64,000 nucleotides of DNA. Origin: Prevotella sp. Lineage in GTDB: Bacteria > Bacteroidota > Bacteroidia > Bacteroidales > Bacteroidaceae. The stretch lies in NCBI GenBank assembly GCA_017557185.1, contig JAFZAP010000078.1, positions 1 to 64,000 of the forward strand. The letters run 5' to 3'. Every line of letters starts with the position of its first letter. The stretch's first letter is position 1. Below, piece by piece: positions 51,803 to 63,300 of this stretch. The translations under genes were made by a program, and so were the position numbers. A model generated the notes under the pieces. It was not told where the DNA came from, ran no database searches, and worked only from the letters and a program-made list of their open reading frames with translations.

Positions 51803-53854
51803 TTAGTTGATGAGGAAAGTCTTTGTCTTGCCCCTGAATGTAGCCTTCACGGTTGCACGTCCGTCGCTGATAGCGCCAATCGAACACTTCACACCCTCTG
51901 GGGCGTTGCTGTCGACCACAATCTTCGAGTCAGCCTTCAGCGGAGCATACAGCTGATAGGTGCTGCAGTCCATCAGACCGTTCTGGTTTCTCGAATAGAC
52001 CGGTGTCTGCGGAATCGCCAGCTTCTTACCATCGACGGTAATCGTCACCTGCGGCACAAAGGGAACCGGACGGGCATCAGTCTTGGAGAATCCGATGCCG
52101 TGAAGGTCGAAGAGTCCCTGCGGACGCTGCGGCTGCTGCGGACCGCGACGCGCCCAAGGTCCCTGCTGTGGCTGCTCGGGCTGCTTCACCTCCGGACCTT
52201 CTACGACGAGGTAGATGGCGTGCTTGCCGGTCAGCCCTTCCACGTCAGGAACTAAATGGGAAATCGTCACTGCCTGATTGACAGGGAATTTGTCGCCAAC
52301 AGGTATAACACCAATCTCTTTACCCTTCGCAGGATCGTCGAGCATCACGTGAATCTTAAAGGCACCCTTGCCGCTATAAGTCAGGTTCAGGTAGAGATGG
52401 GGGTTGTCTCCCTTCTTCACACCCTCGAAGGCCTTGCAGCCCTTCGTGTCCTGAGCCAGACCGCCGAAGCCGAAGTACTTGAAGCCAATGACGCCGCCGT
52501 TCTGAATGCCGGCGAGGTCCATCGAGTTGTTCCACACGTCGTGGTTGTCCTGCATATACTGGTTGGCATTGGGACCCGTCCAATAGCAGGCGAGACCAGC
52601 GCTGTAGTAGTCGTAGGGCGGCAGACCGTAGATCTGGAAGCCCTCGCTGGTCACCTCGGCACCGGTGTACTCATTGCCGTCATTAGCCTTCGCCGTCCAC
52701 ACGTTGTCCTTGGCAAACGGGTCGTAGCCGGTGATGGTCACCTTGCCACCCTTGGCAACAGGTTTCTTGTCCCACGTAATCTTCACCGGAGCCACCATCG
52801 CCTGACGGGCATTGCCGAAGCCGCGCGGCGGACGGTGGTAGAACACATACCACTGGCCGTTGATCTCCTGCAGCGAGCCGTGGGTGTTATGGCCGGCATT
52901 GGTGGTGATGAGCTTCGAGCCGTCCACGTCAGGCACCACGCCACGCGAGTCTACCAGCACACCACCCGACCGCCACGGACCCAGCGGCGAGTCACCGTAG
53001 GCATAGCGCAGGGCGGAGTTGGTATTGCCCAGTCCGTACTCCTTGCCGCTGTAGCCCGAGAACACCATCACGTACTTGTTGCCCACCTGGCGAATCGACG
53101 ATGCCTCGAAAAAGTTGAAGTCCAAGGGATTCTGACCCTTGTAGAGTGCCTTATATTCACTGCCCTCCTTGTCTAAGAGACGGCCGTCGGCACTGCTGGC
53201 GGGGATGAAAGGATCAACGAGCTCCGTGCCCGGGCGCTTCGAGTACATCGTGTTCTGGTCGAGCTCACAGGCGGTGCTGTGCTGGAATCCGTAGAACACA
53301 TAGGCGCGGAAGCCCTTGTCATAGTCGGGGTCTTTCTTGTTGGTCACCGGCTCGATGAACACCGATGGGTCGAAGTCGATGAGCGAGCCCTCCACGCAGC
53401 GTGCGCCGTCCTCGGTGAGGTTCACCGGAGTGAACGGACCATTGGGGCGGTCGCTCTTGCAAACCATTGGAGTGCGACCCCATCCGCGGCTGTGCGGATA
53501 GAGCCAGTAGGTCTTCTTGCCTGTTTGGCGGTCAGTGGTCACCACCAGGTCGGGGGCGTACATCGTGTCCCACTGTCCGTTGACGAACCACGAGAATATG
53601 GGACCTTCGTCGCGCCACTGCGAGAGGTCCTCGACGGGTGCCGACCACATACGGACGTCGTTGCCGCAGTACTGCGAGTAGTTTGTGTCGTGCGAGCCGA
53701 TGATGTAGGCACGCAGCTTTCCCGGCTGGTCGGGGTCTTCAAACACGCGGGGCTCGCCGTCGGGCAGATGTTCCCACAGAGGCAGATAGGGATTCTGTGC
53801 TTGTGTCGATGCTGCTACGACTACGAGCAGCAGGTTCAGAAATAGTCTTTTCAT
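51803..53854 (-). CDS. Secreted glycoside hydrolase family 43 with C-terminal carbohydrate-binding module
   Basis: A 683-residue exported enzyme (signal peptide MKRLFLNLLLVVVAASTQAQ). The N-terminal GH43-like propeller runs from about 25 to 390: FEDPDQPGKLRAYIIGSHD, YAPDLVVTTDRQ, LIDFDPSVFIEP and FEASSIRQVGNKYVMVFSG (likely acid Glu). The C-terminal half holds beta-sandwich binding modules (GAFKIHVMLDDPAKGKEIGV). A low-complexity P/Q-rich stretch (KQPEQPQQGPWARRGPQQPQ) is inserted in the module. The polysaccharide target is unclear; arabinan or xylan are the family options. The start at 53854 follows a TATATTTGC box. Confidence 0.88.
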   Translation of the reverse strand: MKRLFLNLLLVVVAASTQAQNPYLPLWEHLPDGEPRVFEDPDQPGKLRAYIIGSHDTNYSQYCGNDVRMWSAPVEDLSQWRDEGPIFSWFVNGQWDTMYAPDLVVTTDRQTGKKTYWLYPHSRGWGRTPMVCKSDRPNGPFTPVNLTEDGARCVEGSLIDFDPSVFIEPVTNKKDPDYDKGFRAYVFYGFQHSTACELDQNTMYSKRPGTELVDPFIPASSADGRLLDKEGSEYKALYKGQNPLDFNFFEASSIRQVGNKYVMVFSGYSGKEYGLGNTNSALRYAYGDSPLGPWRSGGVLVDSRGVVPDVDGSKLITTNAGHNTHGSLQEINGQWYVFYHRPPRGFGNARQAMVAPVKITWDKKPVAKGGKVTITGYDPFAKDNVWTAKANDGNEYTGAEVTSEGFQIYGLPPYDYYSAGLACYWTGPNANQYMQDNHDVWNNSMDLAGIQNGGVIGFKYFGFGGLAQDTKGCKAFEGVKKGDNPHLYLNLTYSGKGAFKIHVMLDDPAKGKEIGVIPVGDKFPVNQAVTISHLVPDVEGLTGKHAIYLVVEGPEVKQPEQPQQGPWARRGPQQPQRPQGLFDLHGIGFSKTDARPVPFVPQVTITVDGKKLAIPQTPVYSRNQNGLMDCSTYQLYAPLKADSKIVVDSNAPEGVKCSIGAISDGRATVKATFRGKTKTFLIN

Positions 53855-53897
53855 GCGATTTGATATTTTTATGATGTTTGATTTTTTATTCGATGTT

Positions 53898-53906
53898 GCA
53901 AATATA
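53898..53906 (-). promoter_or_regulatory. -7 promoter box for the secreted GH43
   Basis: TATATTTGC on the minus strand, about 44 bp before the ATG at 53854, matches TAnnTTTGC. It lies within an upstream in-frame extension, ruling out the start at 53944. Confidence 0.55.
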
Positions 53907-54035
53907 CTATATTTTTCGCCCGCATGCGTTATATCCATGTTCATAAGTTTTTGTTACTTGTAAACATGTGGTAAATTGATACAATCAACAAACTATTTGT
54001 GACAAAGTGAATTAGCAAATTCGAAAATGACAAAG

Positions 54036-54137
54036 AGGCAAAGCCGAGCGCGTGTTCGACTCTTTGTCTCTCTGTCTTATTTTGTAAGATTTTGAATAAG
54101 ATTTTGTTAAAATTTTGAGACCGATAGGCCGACCCAT
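54036..54137 (+). repeat. Dispersed block R2, copy 1
   Basis: Starts GAGGCAAAGCCGAGCGCGTG, continues GTTCGACTCTTTGTCTCTCT and a TTTTGTAAGATTTTGAATAA run, and ends with GAGACCGATAGGCCGACCCA. The first 70 bp or so recur at 63217-63300; the second part recurs reversed at 58336-58407. A shorter part is at 29686. Confidence 0.75.
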
Positions 54138-54256
54138 ATAATATTATCAGTGAAATCGGTGTAATCTGTGGTTAATAAAGAGTTGTCTATAGAGAATATT
54201 TTCGTATCTTTCGTTTATTTCGATGTTTACGGAATCGGTAAAAAAACATTAATTCT

Positions 54257-54288
54257 TTTGGTTTTTCTCCCGCTTTTATGTACCTTTG
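54257..54288 (+). promoter_or_regulatory. Promoter of dsbD
   Basis: TTTG at 54257-54260, 20 bp, then TACCTTTG at 54281-54288. The -33 context AATTCTTTTGG is the same as at the tRNA-Leu promoter. Confidence 0.7.
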
Positions 54289-54337
54289 TTGCGAGTTTAA
54301 GCGTTATATAGGTAAAAACCAAACTCACAAAAATAAC

Positions 54338-56356
54338 ATGAAACGAATCACAACAATCTGTTTTCTACTAACGGTCGTCTTCGCCGCACAGGCGCAGATG
54401 CAAGACCCCGTGAAGTTCAAGTCTGAATTGAAGACTGGTTCAGGCCCCGAGGCAGAGATGATCTTCAGCGCCACCATCGACCCGGGCTGGCATGTCTATT
54501 CCACCAACCTCGGACAGGACGGCCCCATTGAGGCTTCGTTGCACGTCAACAAACTCGACGGCGCAGAACTCGTTGGCAAGCTCACACCGAAGGGCAAGGA
54601 GATCTCGCAGTACGACGAGATGTTCGACATGAAGCTTCGCTATTTCGAGAATGCTGTGCAGTTCGTGCAGAAGGTGAAGTTCACGAAGCCGCAATACGAC
54701 ATCGATGCGTATCTGGAATGGGGTGCCTGCAACGACGAGATGTGTATGCCGCCGGGCGAAGTAACGCTGAAGAAGAGCGGCAAGAGTCCGGCTAGCCTCA
54801 CCCCCGACCCCACTGAAGAAAAAGAAGAGAAGGCTGAGGACACCGAGAAGACTGCTGCAGAGGATGTCGCCACTACTCAGACCGACTCGGTAACAGTGGA
54901 TTCCATCCCTTCTGAGGGGATGGGAGAGGCCGGTCTCTGGCGTCCCGTCATCCAGGAGCTCCGCGCTATGGGTAGTGCCGACAGCATCACCAACCACTCG
55001 CTGTGGTACATCCTGCTCATGGGCTTCGTGGGCGGTCTGCTGGCAGTAGCGATGCCCTGCATCTGGCCCATCATCCCGATGACGGTGAGCTTCTTCCTGA
55101 AGCGTAATAAGACAGATCATAAGAAAGGCCTCAAGGACGCCATCACCTACGGCCTGTCCATCATCGTCATCTATTTGGCACTGGGCCTGCTGGTCACCGC
55201 GCTCTTCGGCAGCGACACGCTGAATGCCCTGTCCACGAATGCGGTGTTCAACATCTTCCTGTTCCTGCTGCTGGTGGTGTTCGCCCTGTCGTTCTTCGGA
55301 TGGTTCGAAATCAAATTGCCCGACCGCTGGGCAAACGCCGTCGACACGAAGGCATCGAACACCAGCGGACTGCTGTCCATCTTCCTCATGGCGTTCACGC
55401 TAGTGCTGGTGAGCTTCTCCTGCACCGCACCCATCATCGGACTGCTGCTCGTGGAGACCACCACCAGCGGCAACTGGGTGGCACCCGCACTTGGCATGTT
55501 CGGCTTCGCCCTCGCTCTGGCACTGCCTTTCACGCTGTTCGCGATGTTCCCGTCGTGGCTGAAGCAAGCCCCGAAGTCGGGATCGTGGATGACCACCATA
55601 AAGATTGTGCTGGGATTCATCGAGCTCGCCTTCGCACTGAAGTTCTTCTCCGTTGCCGACCTCGCCTATGGCTGGCACCTCCTCGACCGTGAAGTGTTCC
55701 TGTCGCTGTGGATTGTCATCTTCGGCTTGCTCGGCGCTTACCTCGTGGGCTGGCTGAAGTTCCAGGAAGATGAGATCGGCGGCGACATCCGCAAGCCCAT
55801 GCCCGTACTCTGCATCATGGGCGGCCTCATCTCGTTTGCCTTCGCCATCTATATGATTCCGGGCCTGTGGGGAGCACCGTGTAAGGCTGTGAGCGCCTTC
55901 GCACCGCCCATCAACACGCAGGACTTCAACCTGAACACGAAAACCGTCGAGGCCCGCTTCACCGACTATGAGCAGGGAATGGCGGCAGCACGTGCTGAGG
56001 GCAAGCCCGCCTTCCTCGACTTCACCGGCTTCGGCTGCGTGAACTGCCGGAAGATGGAGGCTGCCGTGTGGACCGACCCGCGTGTGGCCGACAAGCTGCG
56101 CAACGACTACGTGCTCATCTCGCTGTTCGTCGACGACAAGACGCCGCTCGCCGAGCCGTTCGAGGTCACCGACGAGAAGGGCGAAACCCGCGTGCTGCGC
56201 ACGGTAGGAGCGAAGTGGAGCTATCTGCAGAGCCATAAGTTCGGGGCCAACGCCCAACCGTTCTATGTTGTCGTCGATGCCGACGGCAATCCGCTCACCG
56301 GCTCCTACTCCTTCAAGGAAGACGTTCCCGCGTTCCTTGAATTCATTTCTCGTTGA
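54338..56356 (+). CDS. dsbD: DsbD-type thiol:disulfide interchange protein
   Basis: A 672-residue inner-membrane protein that passes electrons from the cytoplasm to periplasmic thiols. The N-terminal periplasmic domain (about 20-150) holds the pair in WGACNDEMCMPPGE. The membrane domain (about 220-500) holds Cys in AMPCIWPIIPMTVSFF and SFSCTAPIIGLLLV. The C-terminal thioredoxin domain has GFGCVNCRKME (Cys567, Cys570). The linker before the membrane part includes palindrome-derived SLTPDPTEE and PSEGMGEAG stretches. The start at 54338 follows its promoter. It may serve the TlpA-like lipoprotein of the SusC/SusD locus. Confidence 0.93.
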   Translation: MKRITTICFLLTVVFAAQAQMQDPVKFKSELKTGSGPEAEMIFSATIDPGWHVYSTNLGQDGPIEASLHVNKLDGAELVGKLTPKGKEISQYDEMFDMKLRYFENAVQFVQKVKFTKPQYDIDAYLEWGACNDEMCMPPGEVTLKKSGKSPASLTPDPTEEKEEKAEDTEKTAAEDVATTQTDSVTVDSIPSEGMGEAGLWRPVIQELRAMGSADSITNHSLWYILLMGFVGGLLAVAMPCIWPIIPMTVSFFLKRNKTDHKKGLKDAITYGLSIIVIYLALGLLVTALFGSDTLNALSTNAVFNIFLFLLLVVFALSFFGWFEIKLPDRWANAVDTKASNTSGLLSIFLMAFTLVLVSFSCTAPIIGLLLVETTTSGNWVAPALGMFGFALALALPFTLFAMFPSWLKQAPKSGSWMTTIKIVLGFIELAFALKFFSVADLAYGWHLLDREVFLSLWIVIFGLLGAYLVGWLKFQEDEIGGDIRKPMPVLCIMGGLISFAFAIYMIPGLWGAPCKAVSAFAPPINTQDFNLNTKTVEARFTDYEQGMAAARAEGKPAFLDFTGFGCVNCRKMEAAVWTDPRVADKLRNDYVLISLFVDDKTPLAEPFEVTDEKGETRVLRTVGAKWSYLQSHKFGANAQPFYVVVDADGNPLTGSYSFKEDVPAFLEFISR

Positions 56357-58407: not shown

Positions 58408-58479
58408 TATTTAACCGCAGATTACTCTGATTTTTTTAGAAACAAATTAGAACTAATTCGAACAAATTAAAACAAAATT

Positions 58480-58690
58480 GTTTTTTATGCGAATGAAACG
58501 AACGAAATTGGATCATGGAGGGCGATTCCGCGTGCGGAATCCAACGTTTGACAGAGCCGGCATTGACAAACGAGTTTGTCATGCAGACTCTATCGAACGT
58601 GTGACGATGGTGGAAACACCATCTCCTCCATTATCCGATTTCATTCGTTGAATTCGCTTCCTTCTATTCCTTAGAATTATCTGGGCAAAA
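58480..58690 (+). repeat. Dispersed structured element, copy B
   Basis: Outer inverted repeats (CGAACGAAATTGGATCATGG at 58500 and CCATTATCCGATTTCATTCG at 58628) enclose GATTCCGC-GT-GCGGAATC (58524-58541), a composite stem CGTTTGACAGAG/CTCTATCGAACG closing over GCATTGACAAAC-GA-GTTTGTCATGC (58560-58584), and GATGGTG-GAAA-CACCATC (58606-58623). The IS1595 element below is inserted at its right edge. Confidence 0.75.
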
Positions 58691-58696
58691 AAATTA

Positions 58697-58725
58697 GGGA
58701 ACTATATACCTGTTGGCAGTAAAAA
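58697..58725 (+). repeat. Left terminal inverted repeat of the IS1595 element
   Basis: Begins GGGAACTATATACC and continues TGTTGGCAGTAAAAA; its partner at 61677-61705 differs at one base. Confidence 0.9.
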
Positions 58726-58748
58726 GTTTTAAATGAATATCTATACAG

Positions 58749-58782
58749 AAAATGAGCGGTCACATTAGTGGCTGCTCATTTT
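58749..58782 (-). terminator. Terminator of cargo gene 1
   Basis: AAAATGAGC/GCTCATTTT with inner GTCAC/GTGGC pairs around ATTA, about 55 bp after the cargo gene stop. Confidence 0.6.
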
Positions 58783-58839
58783 ATAACTAAAATAGAATTA
58801 TTTGTTCTAAATTATATATAGCCATAAAGTTCCCTATTT

Positions 58840-59625
58840 TTATTGTTCACTAGCAGTAATCACTTCTATTTCTTCCATTGTTTTCATCTGTTGTTTGAAC
58901 TCAACACCATTAATAATTCCGTCTCTTAAATTTTCAAGTAAATCTAAATTACCGTTAGCCCAAGTTAAAACCAAATTAACATGTTTTTGAGGTATCTTAA
59001 TAGGGGGTAATTTCCCATTATCCATAATTTGCATACTAGGAATGGCAATTGGCATCCACATACGAGGATTAGAAACATCTTTGTCTTGCTGAAACTTCAT
59101 TCTATAACTACCATTATGCCCACTATTTAAATAAGAATTGGTATCGTCAATATATACCCATATTGGTAAGCCAGTTTTGTCTGGGCCATAATTACTCATT
59201 TCAGCAATATAAGACGCACTATAATGATATGCGTGACTATTCTTATATGATTCAATAGCATCAAAAAACTCTGGACCATCTATTTCCATATTAGCAAAAG
59301 CACATAATGAATCATAGTTGTCTTTTATGAACATAATTATCTCGGAAGGTATTTCAAGTGATGAAGTGGCTTCTTTTACAATATCTACTGGATATACGTT
59401 GTTTCCATTGACAACATACAAACATAAAGGATGATTGTAGTATTCATATGTCTTACCACAATCCACAATAATGTCACAAGGCAAACCAGTATCTCTTTGA
59501 TGTAGATATGTAACGCCTTCTGTTAATTCTTCATCTTGAAGTGTTTTAGCATAACCTTCTGCAACAATATTTGTTGCCAAATATTGATTGATTTCTTCTG
59601 ATATTATCTTGTCAATATTATCCAT
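58840..59625 (-). CDS. Transposon cargo gene 1, uncharacterised
   Basis: A 261-residue protein with no signal peptide or membrane segment. It begins MDNIDKIISEEINQYLATNI, a style of N-terminus I associate with large Bacteroidota phages, then strands such as GLPCDIIVDCGKTYEYYNHPLCLYVVNGNNVYPVDIV. No catalytic motif is recognised. AT-richer than the flanks. Its promoter (TATATTTGC, plus 59665-59673) overlaps that of cargo gene 2 in opposite orientation. I do not assign a function. Confidence 0.7.
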   Translation of the reverse strand: MDNIDKIISEEINQYLATNIVAEGYAKTLQDEELTEGVTYLHQRDTGLPCDIIVDCGKTYEYYNHPLCLYVVNGNNVYPVDIVKEATSSLEIPSEIIMFIKDNYDSLCAFANMEIDGPEFFDAIESYKNSHAYHYSASYIAEMSNYGPDKTGLPIWVYIDDTNSYLNSGHNGSYRMKFQQDKDVSNPRMWMPIAIPSMQIMDNGKLPPIKIPQKHVNLVLTWANGNLDLLENLRDGIINGVEFKQQMKTMEEIEVITASEQ

Positions 59626-59655
59626 AATTATACGTTTATATTCTACTATAAATAC

Positions 59656-59673
59656 TATCTTTGTGCAAATATA
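59656..59673. promoter_or_regulatory. Overlapping divergent promoters of the two cargo genes
   Basis: TATCTTTG on the plus strand (59656-59663) and TATATTTGC on the minus strand (plus 59665-59673) are one base apart, so polymerase could probably use only one at a time. Confidence 0.5.
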
Positions 59674-59729
59674 TATAAAAAAATCGAGAAAAACAAATCC
59701 TACGTGATATTTATTTAGAAAAAAGAACT

Positions 59730-60458
59730 ATGAGATATATTAAAGTATTTGAAGAGCATTCTGACTATGAAGACTTCGTAAGTGGTGGTACGATGGATTT
59801 GCCAAATGTATCACATTGTATCGTTGAGAATGAGGTGCATTATAATCCGTATATACCACCATTAAAAGTTGTAGCGACTTTTAACATGGAAAATAGTAGT
59901 TGGATGGGCATAGTTGGGATGATTAGCCAAGGAGAAGATGATGCAGAAGTGTATACGAATTCATTTAGTGAGATTGAAGTTGATGGCGTAGCAGTATCAA
60001 TAAGTGATTTAATCGCCCACGATGGAATGGTGCAAGCAACCGCAGGAAATCATACCGTAACATATACATTAAATGGTAGCGAAATTGGGTATCGTAGTTT
60101 TTATGCTAATTGCGGAGGTTTAGTTAGTATAAATATCCCAGATGGTGTTACAAGTATTGGTGAACGGTCTTTTGCTATATGTCCATTATCTTCAATAACG
60201 ATTCCAAACAGTGTGACAAATATTGATGATGAGGCGTTCTATGAAGCAACAAGTTTAAGAAGTGTAGTGATAAACGCAACCACACCGCCATCAATAGGTG
60301 AAGGTGTATTCACTTATTGGTACGTTGATGAAATAACATATGAGGAAGAATATCGTCCATTGGACGTTACGATTTATGTTCCAAGTGGTTCCGTTAACGC
60401 ATATAAGACCGCACCAGGGTGGAGTGATTATGCAAGTAAAATACAGGCAATACCATAA
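59730..60458 (+). CDS. Transposon cargo gene 2, BspA-type leucine-rich-repeat protein
   Basis: A 242-residue protein. The N-terminus (MRYIKVFEEHSDYEDFV, then MDLPNVSHCIVENEVHYNPY) resembles segments of Bacteroidota phage and mobile-element surface proteins. The C-terminal half contains BspA-type leucine-rich repeats (LVSINIPDGVTSIGERSFAI, LSSITIPNSVTNIDDEAFYE). No signal peptide is seen. Such repeats often bind proteins or surfaces. It has its own promoter and meets the transposase gene end to end. Confidence 0.75.
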   Translation: MRYIKVFEEHSDYEDFVSGGTMDLPNVSHCIVENEVHYNPYIPPLKVVATFNMENSSWMGIVGMISQGEDDAEVYTNSFSEIEVDGVAVSISDLIAHDGMVQATAGNHTVTYTLNGSEIGYRSFYANCGGLVSINIPDGVTSIGERSFAICPLSSITIPNSVTNIDDEAFYEATSLRSVVINATTPPSIGEGVFTYWYVDEITYEEEYRPLDVTIYVPSGSVNAYKTAPGWSDYASKIQAIP

Positions 60459-60481
60459 AGTGAAAACAAATAAACGCATAC

Positions 60482-60512
60482 AAGGGATAATCTCAAACGG
60501 GGTTATCCCTTT
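60482..60512. terminator. Bidirectional terminator between cargo gene 2 and the transposase
   Basis: AAGGGATAA pairs with TTATCCCTT around a loop; T-rich sequence follows on the plus strand (TCTTTAT). Confidence 0.6.
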
Positions 60513-60514
60513 CT

Positions 60515-61528
60515 TTATGCGCTGTGTTTCATCTTCCACATAATGTAGTTGATGACCCTGCGAGTGCGGAAATGCTCAATGCTGACCACACTTGACAATG
60601 AGAGAACGTCTGTATAGTCAAAGGTTTTCACGGCCTTCGAGAACATATCCTCGAAACGGAATGAGGCCTTCTCGTCCCTCGTGTTCCAACGGTACACCTG
60701 CTCGTCGATGTAACGCTGCAAGTAGTCCTTGGACACGCAATGGTATGTGCTGAACACCACACGCTTGAAGTGTGCCCAAAAGCCCTCGATGCCGTTGGTG
60801 TGGATGTCATTGGCACGTACATACTCACGCTGGCTGTGGTTCACAAAAACGTGATTATAACCGTTCTCATCCAACTTGTGGTAGATGGATGCTTCGTCAG
60901 TATAAGTAGTACTTCCTTGCTCCACGAACTGCGACACTATGGGCATAAGGGTTGCACCCTTGGTATCCTCCACCTTCATGGCAACCACCTTGCCCTCACG
61001 CTCAACCATGCCGAAGATGGGAGTCTTGGTCTTCGTTGAACGTCCCTGAGTGCCCTCGGTCTTCTTAGACTCATGCTTATTGGTCTCACGGCCACCAAGG
61101 TACATCTCGTCCATCTCAACCTCTCCATTGAGAGATACAGCGTCAGACTGACCGTACAGGCCACGAATCTTGTGCAGCATGAACCAAGCGGTCTTCTGAG
61201 TAACATTGATGTCCCTCGACAACTGAAGAGATGAAACACCCTTCTTGTGGGAAGATACGAGGTACATTGCCATGAACCACTTGCGGAGGCTAATCTTCGT
61301 GTTCTCGAAGATTGTACCTACGGTAACAGAGAAGTGCTTCGCACAGTCCTTGCAGATATAGCGACCTTCTGCCGTCATATAGGTGTGAGTGCATCCGCAG
61401 TAGGGACAGACTGCATTTCCCTCGCCCCATCGCTCCTGTGCGATTGCAGCCTTGCACTTGTCCTCGGTGTTGAAGAAATCAACGAGTTGGAAGAGGGATT
61501 CGAACTTTGTGAAACTGATGTGTGTCAT
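60515..61528 (-). CDS. IS1595-family transposase
   Basis: A 337-residue DDE-type transposase. An N-terminal zinc ribbon (CPYCGC ... CKDC, about 42-65) is followed by a helix-turn-helix (MAMYLVSSHKKGVSSLQLSRDINVTQKTAWFMLHKIR) and the catalytic core: EMDEMYLGG (first Asp), TYTDEASIYHKL (second Asp), and NGIEGFWAHFKR (Asn/Glu region of this family). The start at 61528 lies downstream of the promoter box at 61570; the frame extends upstream to 61588. No frameshift or stop, so it may be active. Confidence 0.93.
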   Translation of the reverse strand: MTHISFTKFESLFQLVDFFNTEDKCKAAIAQERWGEGNAVCPYCGCTHTYMTAEGRYICKDCAKHFSVTVGTIFENTKISLRKWFMAMYLVSSHKKGVSSLQLSRDINVTQKTAWFMLHKIRGLYGQSDAVSLNGEVEMDEMYLGGRETNKHESKKTEGTQGRSTKTKTPIFGMVEREGKVVAMKVEDTKGATLMPIVSQFVEQGSTTYTDEASIYHKLDENGYNHVFVNHSQREYVRANDIHTNGIEGFWAHFKRVVFSTYHCVSKDYLQRYIDEQVYRWNTRDEKASFRFEDMFSKAVKTFDYTDVLSLSSVVSIEHFRTRRVINYIMWKMKHSA

Positions 61529-61569
61529 AACGGTATACTTGCTAAATGGTTTATAATCAAATTCTACTA

Positions 61570-61577
61570 CAAATATA
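61570..61577 (-). promoter_or_regulatory. -7 promoter box for the transposase
   Basis: TATATTTG on the minus strand, 42 bp before the ATG at 61528. Confidence 0.45.
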
Positions 61578-61622
61578 CCATTTTTCAAGTATTATACTTG
61601 AATTCATACGTATAACAACGAA

Positions 61623-61656
61623 AAATCCGCAGGAATCTCATCTTTCATGCGGATTT
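61623..61656. terminator. Hairpin near the right end of the transposon
   Basis: AAATCCGCA pairs with TGCGGATTT. It may block outside transcription from entering the transposase gene. Confidence 0.55.
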
Positions 61657-61676
61657 GCATATCTATTCATGGGAAT

Positions 61677-61705
61677 TTTTTACTGCCAACAAGTATATAG
61701 TTCCC
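61677..61705 (-). repeat. Right terminal inverted repeat of the IS1595 element
   Basis: Ends AGTATATAGTTCCC; partner of 58697-58725. The target duplication AAAAATTA follows at 61706-61713. Confidence 0.9.
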
Positions 61706-61893
61706 AAAAATTAATGATAATTTGTGGATAATTTGTGGGAATTTGTGTTGAAAATGGTTATCACCGAAGGTACTCTTGCACGGAAAACAAAGCAAAAATT
61801 ATCTTTTTTGTTTTGTATTCTCCTCACTAATTGGATAAATTTCTCACACTCGAAAAAGTAATAGCTTTCTTTTTGCATTTCCCTCACTAATTC

Positions 61894-61919: not shown

Positions 61920-61953
61920 TTTCGCTCGACAATAAAAATAATTGCGAAATTAT

Positions 61954-61985
61954 TTTGTATTGTTCTCGCTTAATCGTACCTTTGC
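61954..61985 (+). promoter_or_regulatory. Promoter of the EEP-family gene
   Basis: TTTG at 61954-61957, 19 bp, then TACCTTTGC at 61977-61985; the ATG at 62014 follows. Confidence 0.65.
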
Positions 61986-62013
61986 AAAAGGAAACCTCAA
62001 AAACGATATCGTT

Positions 62014-62974: not shown

Positions 62975-63195
62975 TTACCGCAGATTTCGCTGATTTCGCT
63001 GATTTCTAAGGAATCAAGGAATCGAGGAAACGAATGACATGAAGGAAATAGGTCAATGGAGGGCGATTCCGCTCGCGGAATCATAATGTTTGACAGGTTC
63101 GGCACCGACAAACTCGTTTGCCGTGCAGACCCTATCGAACGTGTGTCGATGGTGAGAAACACCATCTCCTCCATTGGCCTATTTCATTCATGCCA
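62975..63195 (+). repeat. Dispersed structured element, copy C
   Basis: Same architecture as copies A and B: GAAATAGGTCAATGGAGG (63048 region) against CCTCCATTGGCCTATTTC; GATTCCGC-TC-GCGGAATC; a stem GTTTGACAGG/CCTATCGAAC over a GACAAACTCGTTTG-containing hairpin; and GATGGTGAGAAACACCATC. Several stems keep pairing through paired base changes. Confidence 0.75.
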
Positions 63196-63216
63196 TTCTT
63201 TCTCCGTTCGCTACGA

Positions 63217-63300
63217 AAGCGGCAAAGCCGAGCGCGTGTTCGACTCTTTGTCTCTATGTCTAATTTTGTAAGATTTTGAATAAGATTTTGATAAATTTCT
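63217..63300 (+). repeat. Dispersed block R2, copy 2
   Basis: GGCAAAGCCGAGCGCGTGTT followed by CGACTCTTTGTCTCTATGTC and a TTTTGTAAGATTTTGAATAA run, nearly identical to 54036-54110. It sits directly after structured element C. Confidence 0.75.

What the first reader, a model, noticed from the sequence alone, without database searches (positions are those of the whole stretch)
58697..61705. Intact IS1595 transposon carrying two AT-rich, phage-like cargo genes
Terminal repeats of 29 bp with one mismatch, an exact 8-bp target duplication and an intact transposase. The two cargo genes are a divergent pair with overlapping promoters; one has BspA-type leucine-rich repeats and an N-terminus resembling Bacteroidota phage proteins, the other is uncharacterised. 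Their base composition differs from the chromosome. Cargo pairs on such elements may be defence, surface or toxin-antidote genes.
Basis: partly seen in the sequence, partly recalled or inferred. Interest (0 to 1): 0.72.

Follow-up and report, generated by a model that had tools for sequence, protein, structure and literature searches.

The report
Jumping gene carrying jumbo-phage-type cargo
A small jumping gene in a gut-type bacterium carries two genes of a kind otherwise seen in giant bacterial viruses, and its relatives sit both in bacteria and in such viruses with changing cargo, which suggests a shuttle that swaps virus proteins around.

Summary
58697-61705 is an IS1595-family transposon: 32-bp inverted ends (2 mismatches), exact 8-bp duplication, intact transposase, two divergent AT-rich cargo genes. 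I delimited 27 bacterial elements (window included) and 26 on viral contigs with such ends and, for 52 of them, a target duplication. Cargo mostly differs between elements.

Close relatives lie in uncultivated jumbo-phage contigs up to 412 kb. Phage and bacterial transposases intermingle on the tree (11 changes; shuffled labels average 13). Cargo proteins repeatedly carry one of two short modules common in those phages: a helix ending in [LIV]-x-E (tag A, variant C), or 'YLKxF...LPNVS...VHYNP' (tag B). The window pair carries C-type (c1) and B (c2). A viral-contig-trained profile finds tag A in 12 of 19 close elements, 0 of 7 distant ones and 0 of 422 flanking ORFs. Fourteen of 16 phage records hold 4-18 copies, some beside a T4-type prohead protease.

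Best reading: a phage-bacterium shuttle whose cargo are phage accessory proteins; tag A/C is probably a capsid-targeting peptide as in T4. The shuttle is well supported, the capsid role inferred. Defence or toxin-antidote readings lack support.

The parts
58697..61705 (.). IS1595-family transposon, 3009 bp
   Evidence: inverted ends, exact 8-bp duplication, transposase
58689..58696 (.). target-site duplication, left copy AAAAATTA
   Evidence: shifted controls
61706..61713 (.). target-site duplication, right copy AAAAATTA
58697..58728 (+). left terminal inverted repeat
   Evidence: the end sequence occurs in 9 of 200 genus genomes (own included) at <=3 mismatches, and a degenerate 21-base form in 66 viral-contig stretches
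61674..61705 (-). right terminal inverted repeat
58840..59625 (-). cargo c1, 261 aa; two copies of an unnamed ~100-aa domain (about residues 35-128 and 142-251)
   Evidence: no family below E 0.1 in Pfam, PHROGs, NCBIfam or PADLOC; relatives in L006, L007, L008, L245/L344; the repeat is read from relatives, since the two copies within c1 align only weakly with each other
59557..59625 (-). N-terminal tag of c1 (IDKIISEEINQYLATNIVAE), C-type helix followed by V-A-E
   Evidence: residues 4-16 score 17.8 bits against the tag C profile, best of 2000 shuffles 9.4; no match to the tag A profile
59730..60458 (+). cargo c2, 242 aa, BspA-type LRR protein without an evident signal peptide (by eye)
   Evidence: PF13306 2e-17; relatives in phage-borne elements L248, L250, L251 and in L233
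59730..59852 (+). tag B module of c2 (residues 1-41)
   Evidence: profile from viral contigs only, 1.5e-19
59666..59697 (-). promoter-like motif of c1 (TTTG-N20-TATATTTG)
   Evidence: consensus recalled
59656..59663 (+). -7-like motif TATCTTTG of c2, beside the c1 promoter
   Evidence: consensus recalled
60515..61588 (-). IS1595 transposase (likely start ATG 61528)
   Evidence: start by eye
61570..61577 (-). -7-like motif TATATTTG upstream of the transposase; a 15-bp stretch there (14 of 15) recurs in c1's leader
   Evidence: (repeat D6)

Best explanation
The element is one member of a group of IS1595 transposons that shuttle between jumbo phages and Prevotella-type chromosomes and change their cargo. 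SHOWN by sequence: the same kind of ends and closely related transposases sit in bacterial contigs and in phage contigs; cargo mostly differs between elements; most elements of the close clade carry a cargo protein with a short module that is widespread in jumbo-phage proteins; some phage-borne cassettes have the ends and cargo but no transposase. INFERRED: transposition moves the element from an infected cell's chromosome into a phage genome and back, and cargo changes by capture of phage genes. INFERRED with less certainty: tag A/C is a capsid-targeting propeptide of the T4 kind, which brings the cargo into the prohead and is cut after [L/I/V]-x-E by the phage's S77 protease. c1 would then be an internal head protein ejected into the next host. 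Tag B on c2 more likely anchors an adhesin-like repeat domain to the virion. In the chromosome the two genes are probably idle passengers unless such a phage infects.
For: Shuttle: 15 IMG/VR contigs encode a transposase 58-76% identical (best segment), among them contigs of 412,753, 412,514, 354,809, 344,580 and 235,679 bp. Of 81 viral-contig loci with a transposase or an end, 37 hold a pair of facing ends, 30 of these with a 7/8 or 8/8 duplication (26 distinct elements, 24 of them 8/8) and 7 without. Tree of 43 transposases: 27 bacterial and 16 phage rows need 11 changes, at least 9 forced by starred branches; shuffled mean 13, 61-69 of 500 shuffles as low, so no clear clustering by host. Sixteen element- or end-bearing phage records: 12 have Peptidase_S77 (0 of 14 control genomes) and 11 a terminase (6 of 14 control genomes also ring); major head and portal proteins in the head cluster of L333. 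Cargo: tag A by viral-contig-trained profile in 12 of 19 close-clade elements, 0 of 7 distant ones, 13 of 156 inner ORFs, 0 of 422 outer ORFs, 0 of 156 shuffled; tag B in 3 of 19, 0 outside; together 15 of 19. Phage-borne L248 and L251 carry transposase plus tag B LRR; L250 (no matching duplication) adds a tag A gene. c1 family: a second IS1595 element (L344 3332-6070, 20/20 ends, 8/8 duplication) carries a c1 relative beside a tag A gene; another relative with a tag A-like start lies beside a phage-type terminase gene. Capsid role: of 165 unique tags 144 could be anchored; 135 of these have [LIV]-x-E within one position of the same place, 126 have [LI]-x-E exactly there. The T4 gp21 rule is L/I-X-E, with 10-19-residue propeptides on internal proteins (PMC9026906, sections 9 and 10 read). 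A tag A ORF lies next to the S77 protease gene in L333, L334 and L337. 14 of 16 phage records hold 4-18 tags, 147 in all.
Against: c1 does not match the tag A profile, only the tag C profile, which rests on five partly related C-terminal tags, and its site is V-A-E, not L/I-x-E. The c1 domain was found in 0 of 35 virus records searched and by neither of two viral scans; its phage link rests on one MAG contig. 45 of 210 tagged ORFs (near-duplicates included) have the tag inside and 5 at the C-terminus, unlike a plain N-terminal propeptide (start codons not curated); the one beside the protease in L337 is internal too. Beside the protease, L336 has only weak matches and L335 none. Tag B has no such site. 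4 of 16 records lack a S77 match (fragments possible). No tag match in 50,697 GenBank phages or 72,556 plasmids, so nothing deposited as a phage supports it. Some IMG/VR contigs may be bacterial and some MAG contigs viral. L100 and seven viral loci have paired ends without a duplication, L117 only 5/8. No empty site was found.
Confidence: 0.6

Rival explanations
1. Plain passenger capture: the IS1595 element picks up whatever phage genes lie beside it, and the cargo has no role for element, phage or host. The tag is enriched only because these phages are full of tagged genes.
For: Tagged genes are common in the phages: 4-18 in each of 14 of 16 records. Cargo is diverse and mostly not shared between elements. 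AT-rich, orphan-like genes; c1 is rare.
Against: Tagged cargo frames stay open over 116-381 codons and 15 of 19 close elements carry a tag A or B protein, and cassettes keep ends plus one or two tagged genes without transposase. That looks more selective than random capture, but I made no estimate of the tagged share of all phage genes and no test of selection.
Confidence: 0.25
2. The cargo serves the bacterium, as surface, defence or toxin-antidote genes spread by the transposon.
For: Genes intact on a chromosome, with promoter-like motifs; one c1-domain protein (L346/L007) on a bacterial contig seems fused to LRR-like repeats (by eye), a hint that c1 and c2 types work together.
Against: No PADLOC hit, no signal peptide on c2 by eye, pair not conserved, and the same gene types sit in phages.
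Confidence: 0.1
3. The tag is a phage docking or sorting helix other than a capsid-targeting propeptide, for example for another phage assembly or compartment. The element would still be a phage shuttle.
For: Tags lie at the N-terminus (160 of 210), inside (45) or at the C-terminus (5), and tag C proteins carry it at either end, as docking helices may.
Against: [LIV]-x-E at nearly one place in 135 of 144 anchored tags, neighbourhood of the S77 protease in three phage loci, and the same protease family in 12 of 16 records. T4 Alt also has propeptides at both ends (PMC9026906 section 10).
Confidence: 0.25

Closest known systems
IS1595-family transposons with passenger genes (family description recalled; ISfinder groups not searched)
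   Same: DDE_Tnp_IS1595 plus zinc ribbon, ~30-bp inverted ends, 8-bp duplication, passenger genes
   Different: Cargo of jumbo-phage type with recurrent short tags; transposase-less cassettes; a tree that mixes phages and bacteria
T4 capsid targeting sequences of internal proteins IPI-IPIII and Alt (PMC9026906, sections 9 and 10 read)
   Same: Short, mostly N-terminal module on many unrelated proteins; L/I-X-E-like end; gp21-family (S77) protease in most of the same phage records
   Different: About 24 residues rather than 10-19, a long conserved helix, sometimes internal or C-terminal; packaging and cleavage untested; carried on a transposon
BspA-type LRR proteins (LRR_5)
   Same: PF13306 repeats in c2
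   Different: No evident signal peptide (by eye); phage-type tag B at the N-terminus
Ejection proteins of giant phages such as SPN3US (openings of the abstracts of PMC5694885 and PMC7411985 seen in a listing)
   Same: Many accessory head proteins in one large phage
   Different: No sequence relation tested; here some such genes may lie on transposons

Membership tests
IS1595 family | IS1595 DDE transposase domain | tested here: met
   PF12762 9e-46, NF033547 5e-62, over both cut-offs
IS1595 family | N-terminal zinc ribbon | tested here: met
   PF12760 1e-9
IS1595 family | terminal inverted repeats and 8-bp duplication | tested here: met
IS1595 family | placement in a named ISfinder group | not testable with these tools
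   no ISfinder at hand
T4-type capsid targeting sequence (tag A) | short N-terminal module on unrelated proteins of one phage | tested here: met
   160 of 210 N-terminal, 45 inside, 5 C-terminal; 4-18 per record in 14 of 16
T4-type capsid targeting sequence (tag A) | L/I-X-E site at its end | tested here: met
   126 of 144 anchored tags with [LI]-x-E at one place, 135 with [LIV]-x-E within one position; 21 of 165 not anchored
T4-type capsid targeting sequence (tag A) | gp21-type (S77) protease in the same phage | tested here: met
   12 of 16 records, 0 of 14 control genomes
T4-type capsid targeting sequence (tag A) | packaging into the head and cleavage | not testable with these tools
   needs virion proteomics
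T4-type capsid targeting sequence (c1 of the window) | same module with L/I-X-E | tested here: inconclusive
   tag C profile 17.8 bits against shuffles up to 9.4; no tag A match; ends V-A-E
Anti-phage defence system | match to a known defence protein | tested here: not met
   0 PADLOC hits for c1 and c2 up to E 1; the transposase had one weak hit to PDC-M01B, 0.0011
Toxin-antitoxin pair | conserved two-gene pair | tested here: not met
   c1 relative has another partner in L344; sister cargo differs
BspA-like surface protein | LRR_5 repeats | tested here: met
   PF13306 2e-17
BspA-like surface protein | secretion signal | tested here: inconclusive
   none seen by eye; no predictor run

The most novel reading that the evidence does not exclude
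A cargo-swapping transposon system shared by jumbo phages and their Bacteroidota hosts, whose passengers are proteins addressed to the phage head by a portable capsid-targeting tag. The transposon would supply phages with exchangeable ejected effectors and virion adhesins, and in return ride phages between hosts; transposase-less cassettes would work like mobile accessory slots of the phage genome.
Probability: 0.4. Interest if true: 0.88.

Novelty: new variant of a known kind. Interest (0 to 1): 0.72.

Why it matters
It would show how very large phages exchange accessory virion genes with one another and with bacterial chromosomes through a common transposon. It also offers a sequence handle (tag A/C) for spotting candidate ejected proteins in uncultivated jumbo phages. 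Whether such proteins are packaged and cut could be tested directly by virion proteomics. Searches of the held papers for 'IS1595' with 'jumbo phage' and for the tag core 'LTESDL' gave 0 papers. 'Huge phage' with 'transposase' and 'passenger' gave one paper, unrelated by its title. IS1595/phage/transposon/rumen gave four: in one, PMC9296519, the passages show IS1595 only in a table of counts; the other three are on other matters by title and opening abstract.

Tried and rejected
Defence/toxin-antidote reading: no PADLOC match for the cargo, pair not conserved. c1 by family search: only chance-level hits in Pfam and PHROGs (best E 0.13), none in NCBIfam or PADLOC, and no PDB sequence below E 0.8 with the domain alignment; its relatives L006 and L245 had no Pfam family, L245 a weak PHROG hit (phrog_38534, 0.0003, unknown function). 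c1 and c2 relatives by peptide patterns: viral scans with c1, c2 and the L245 relative, and one genome scan with c1, found none. c1 in plasmids: none. c2 in GenBank phages: 6 records, LRR part only, none covering 80%. The window transposase in GenBank phages: 5 records, all under 60% identity. Empty site: the right-hand gene's relatives in four genomes have another neighbourhood. Structure prediction: switched off, so no fold search. Tag A in GenBank phages and plasmids: none (short query, low-complexity filter on). ART-like reading of some cargo (L258, L222, L233) is by eye only; Pfam gave no ART family.

Selection and rows dropped. Bacterial elements were kept if the best end pair had an 8/8 duplication (L117, 5/8, added by hand), viral ones if 7/8 or better, so the share with duplications is partly by construction; the shifted controls and the 30 of 37 paired-end viral loci are the fairer measures. 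Dropped: L050 (same element as L122); L268, L273, L288, L289 (same elements as L258, L254, L251, L246); seven viral end pairs without a matching duplication (L194, L250, L267, L278, L294, L304, L307; five are described); bacterial L100, with ends but no duplication; further bacterial loci of the 45 with no end pair found. Of the transposase hits I fetched 10 of 32 other family genomes and 26 of 28 other genus genomes. For the tree, transposases under 250 aligned residues or under 50% identity, identical sequences and seven duplicate loci were left out. L344 was found through its tag and is not among the 19. The tag A training set (91 tags) comes from contigs found with a pattern that I wrote after seeing cargo tags, so it is not independent in conception. 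Two of the twelve peptides behind one search come from a searched record (L333), so that count is not wholly independent either.
Full report
1. The element. Window 58697-61705 has inverted ends of 32 bp with two mismatches and an exact AAAAATTA duplication. Its transposase is of the IS1595 family by Pfam and NCBIfam. Two divergent genes, c1 (261 aa, -) and c2 (242 aa, +), lie between the transposase and the left end. G+C is 0.32, 0.38 and 0.49 for c1, c2 and the transposase, against 0.53 for the window. There is one full copy in the genome's contigs. The flanking genes look chromosomal by eye; no family search was made on them.

2. Sister elements. I searched the transposase in 151 family genomes (33 with a match, own included) and 398 genus genomes (29 at E <= 1e-40, own included), and the end sequence in 200 genus genomes (9 with a match, own included). 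I fetched 10 of the 32 other family genomes, 26 of the 28 other genus genomes with a transposase, and all 8 others with an end. The 45 loci examined gave 26 distinct elements with paired ends, 25 with 8/8 duplications and one (L117) with 5/8. L344 makes 27. L100 has ends without a duplication. Their cargo is listed: 72 ORFs of at least 75 aa, mostly different between elements, though some families recur (for example the 141-148-aa proteins of L097 and L113, by eye).

3. Recurrent tags. Many cargo proteins share a helix, RLTESDLHRIVKESVNKILxE (tag A). A profile trained on 91 tags from viral contigs found it in 12 of 19 elements whose transposase is at least 52% identical to the window's, in 0 of 7 more distant elements, in 13 of 156 inner ORFs, 0 of 422 ORFs outside the elements in the same loci and 0 of 156 shuffled ORFs. 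A second module, YLKxF...LPNVS...VHYNP (tag B), starts c2 and cargo of L098 and L111, found with a profile from viral contigs only, and in no outside ORF. Without either by these profiles are L051, L099, L101 and L106 (part of L106 is withheld).

4. c1. It belongs to a small unnamed family with two copies of a domain of about 100 aa. A relative, with an N-terminal helix, is cargo of another IS1595 element (L344, 2739 bp, 8/8 duplication, transposase frameshifted), beside a tag A gene. Another (L006/L345) starts with a tag A-like helix and lies beside a terminase gene on a 286-kb contig of a MAG. A third (L007/L346) seems fused to LRR-like repeats on a bacterial contig (by eye). c1's own N-terminus, IDKIISEEINQYLATNIVAE, matches the C-type tags (17.8 bits; best of 2000 shuffled c1 sequences 9.4), which in L097, L113, L122 and others stand at the C-terminus and in some phage ORFs at the N-terminus.

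5. Phages. The tag core pattern occurs in 103 viral-contig stretches and in 20 stretches of the 84,980 species genomes. Of the 20 genome stretches, 11 have an IS1595 transposase or a pair of ends with an 8/8 duplication within the 8 kb or less held (L226, L227, L228, L236, L237, L238, L240-L243, L245). IMG/VR contigs gave 15 relatives of the transposase (58-76% identity) and 66 stretches with the end sequence. Of the 81 loci so obtained, 37 hold facing ends 150-9000 bp apart: 30 with a duplication of at least 7/8, 7 without; 44 hold no pair. The 30 are 26 distinct elements: 15 of 902 bp or more, and 11 of 165-614 bp that look like MITEs. Of the 15, six have a transposase (in L259 a fragment) and nine have none. 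Five carry tag A, four tag B, four TnpB, one (L246) tag C, one (L259) none of these. L248 and L251 match the window's layout in having transposase plus tag B LRR. L250 has transposase, tag B LRR and a tag A gene, but its end pair has no matching duplication.

6. Are they phages? Sixteen element- or end-bearing records of 116-413 kb: 12 have Peptidase_S77 (0 of 14 control genomes) and 11 a terminase (also in 6 of 14 control genomes). In L333 the cluster holds portal and major head proteins by PHROGs. Tag A matches number 4-18 in 14 of 16 records, 147 in all, none in the other two. In L333, L334 and L337 a tag A ORF lies directly beside the S77 protease gene (in L337 the tag is internal); in L336 nearby ORFs match only weakly and in L335 there is none at that place.

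7. Traffic. On a tree of 43 transposases (27 bacterial, 16 viral) the label changes at least 11 times, 9 forced by starred branches; shuffled labels average 13 and 61-69 of 500 are as low. So the two pools are not separate lineages. Mis-binned contigs could inflate this.

8. Why a capsid-targeting tag. Of 165 unique tags 144 could be anchored; 126 have [LI]-x-E at one place and 135 [LIV]-x-E within one position of it. T4 gp21 cuts after L/I-X-E, and internal proteins bear 10-19-residue N-terminal propeptides that take them into the head; Alt, an ADP-ribosyltransferase, is packaged and cut too (PMC9026906: sections 9 and 10 read, passages seen). Most of the phage records have the same protease family. 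Against it: 45 of 210 tagged ORFs have the tag inside, c1 has V-A-E, and no virion data exist. I put the shuttle at about 0.85 and the capsid role at about 0.5.

9. 'The same pair elsewhere': not seen as a pair, but both gene types recur in sister elements. Empty site: not found; synteny is lost in the four genomes that could be compared.

10. Literature. IS1595 with 'passenger genes' is in 14 papers of the library (listing only); none is on phage cargo by title and opening abstract. The Jug-phage preprint PMC12363816 (abstract and passages seen) mentions prohead protease and has no occurrence of 'transpos', 'TnpB' or 'IS1595' in its main text. That IS1595 elements can carry passengers is recalled knowledge. 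The phage link with tagged cargo turned up in none of these searches, most of which I saw as listings only.

Noticed in passing
L276 5003-6440, L277 9438-11553, L292 10572-12129, L301 449-1798 (8/8 duplications); L304 11438-12885 (no matching duplication): TnpB genes (OrfB_IS605 and Cas12f1-like TNB domains by Pfam for L277 and L301, the others by eye) lie as cargo between IS1595-type ends without a transposase, in viral contigs: an RNA-guided nuclease family on a different kind of transposon.
   Followed up: partly
L262, L263, L269, L272, L275, L280, L285, L286, L291, L312, L316; L054 504-809: MITE-like pairs of IS1595 ends 165-614 bp apart with 7/8 or 8/8 duplications in viral contigs, and a 306-bp pair of ends on a bacterial contig.
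   Followed up: partly
window 61942-61990: About 45 bp here, upstream of the right-hand gene, match at least 14 other places of the same genome and several in G007 and G009 (lists capped): a dispersed promoter-like or leader repeat.
   Followed up: no
window 58478-58651 and 63056-63271: Short ORFs in both flanks translate to similar peptides (FDRAGIDKRVCHADSIERVTMV / FDRFGTDKLVCRADPIERVSMV), probably a dispersed intergenic repeat rather than genes (by eye).
   Followed up: no
L007 1429-2337 (L346 6851-7759): A c1-type domain seems fused to LRR-like repeats in one protein on a bacterial contig, which hints that the c1 and c2 types are functionally linked (repeats by eye).
   Followed up: partly
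L239 1104-1367 (-) and 1674-2048 (+): Segatella baroniae B14, a named strain with a complete chromosome record, has a divergent pair of ORFs with tag A and C-terminal tag C and no IS1595 transposase in the 8 kb seen: perhaps a decayed cassette.
   Followed up: partly
window 53750-54499: A stretch of low G+C (0.36-0.39) in a 0.58 background, outside the element.
   Followed up: no
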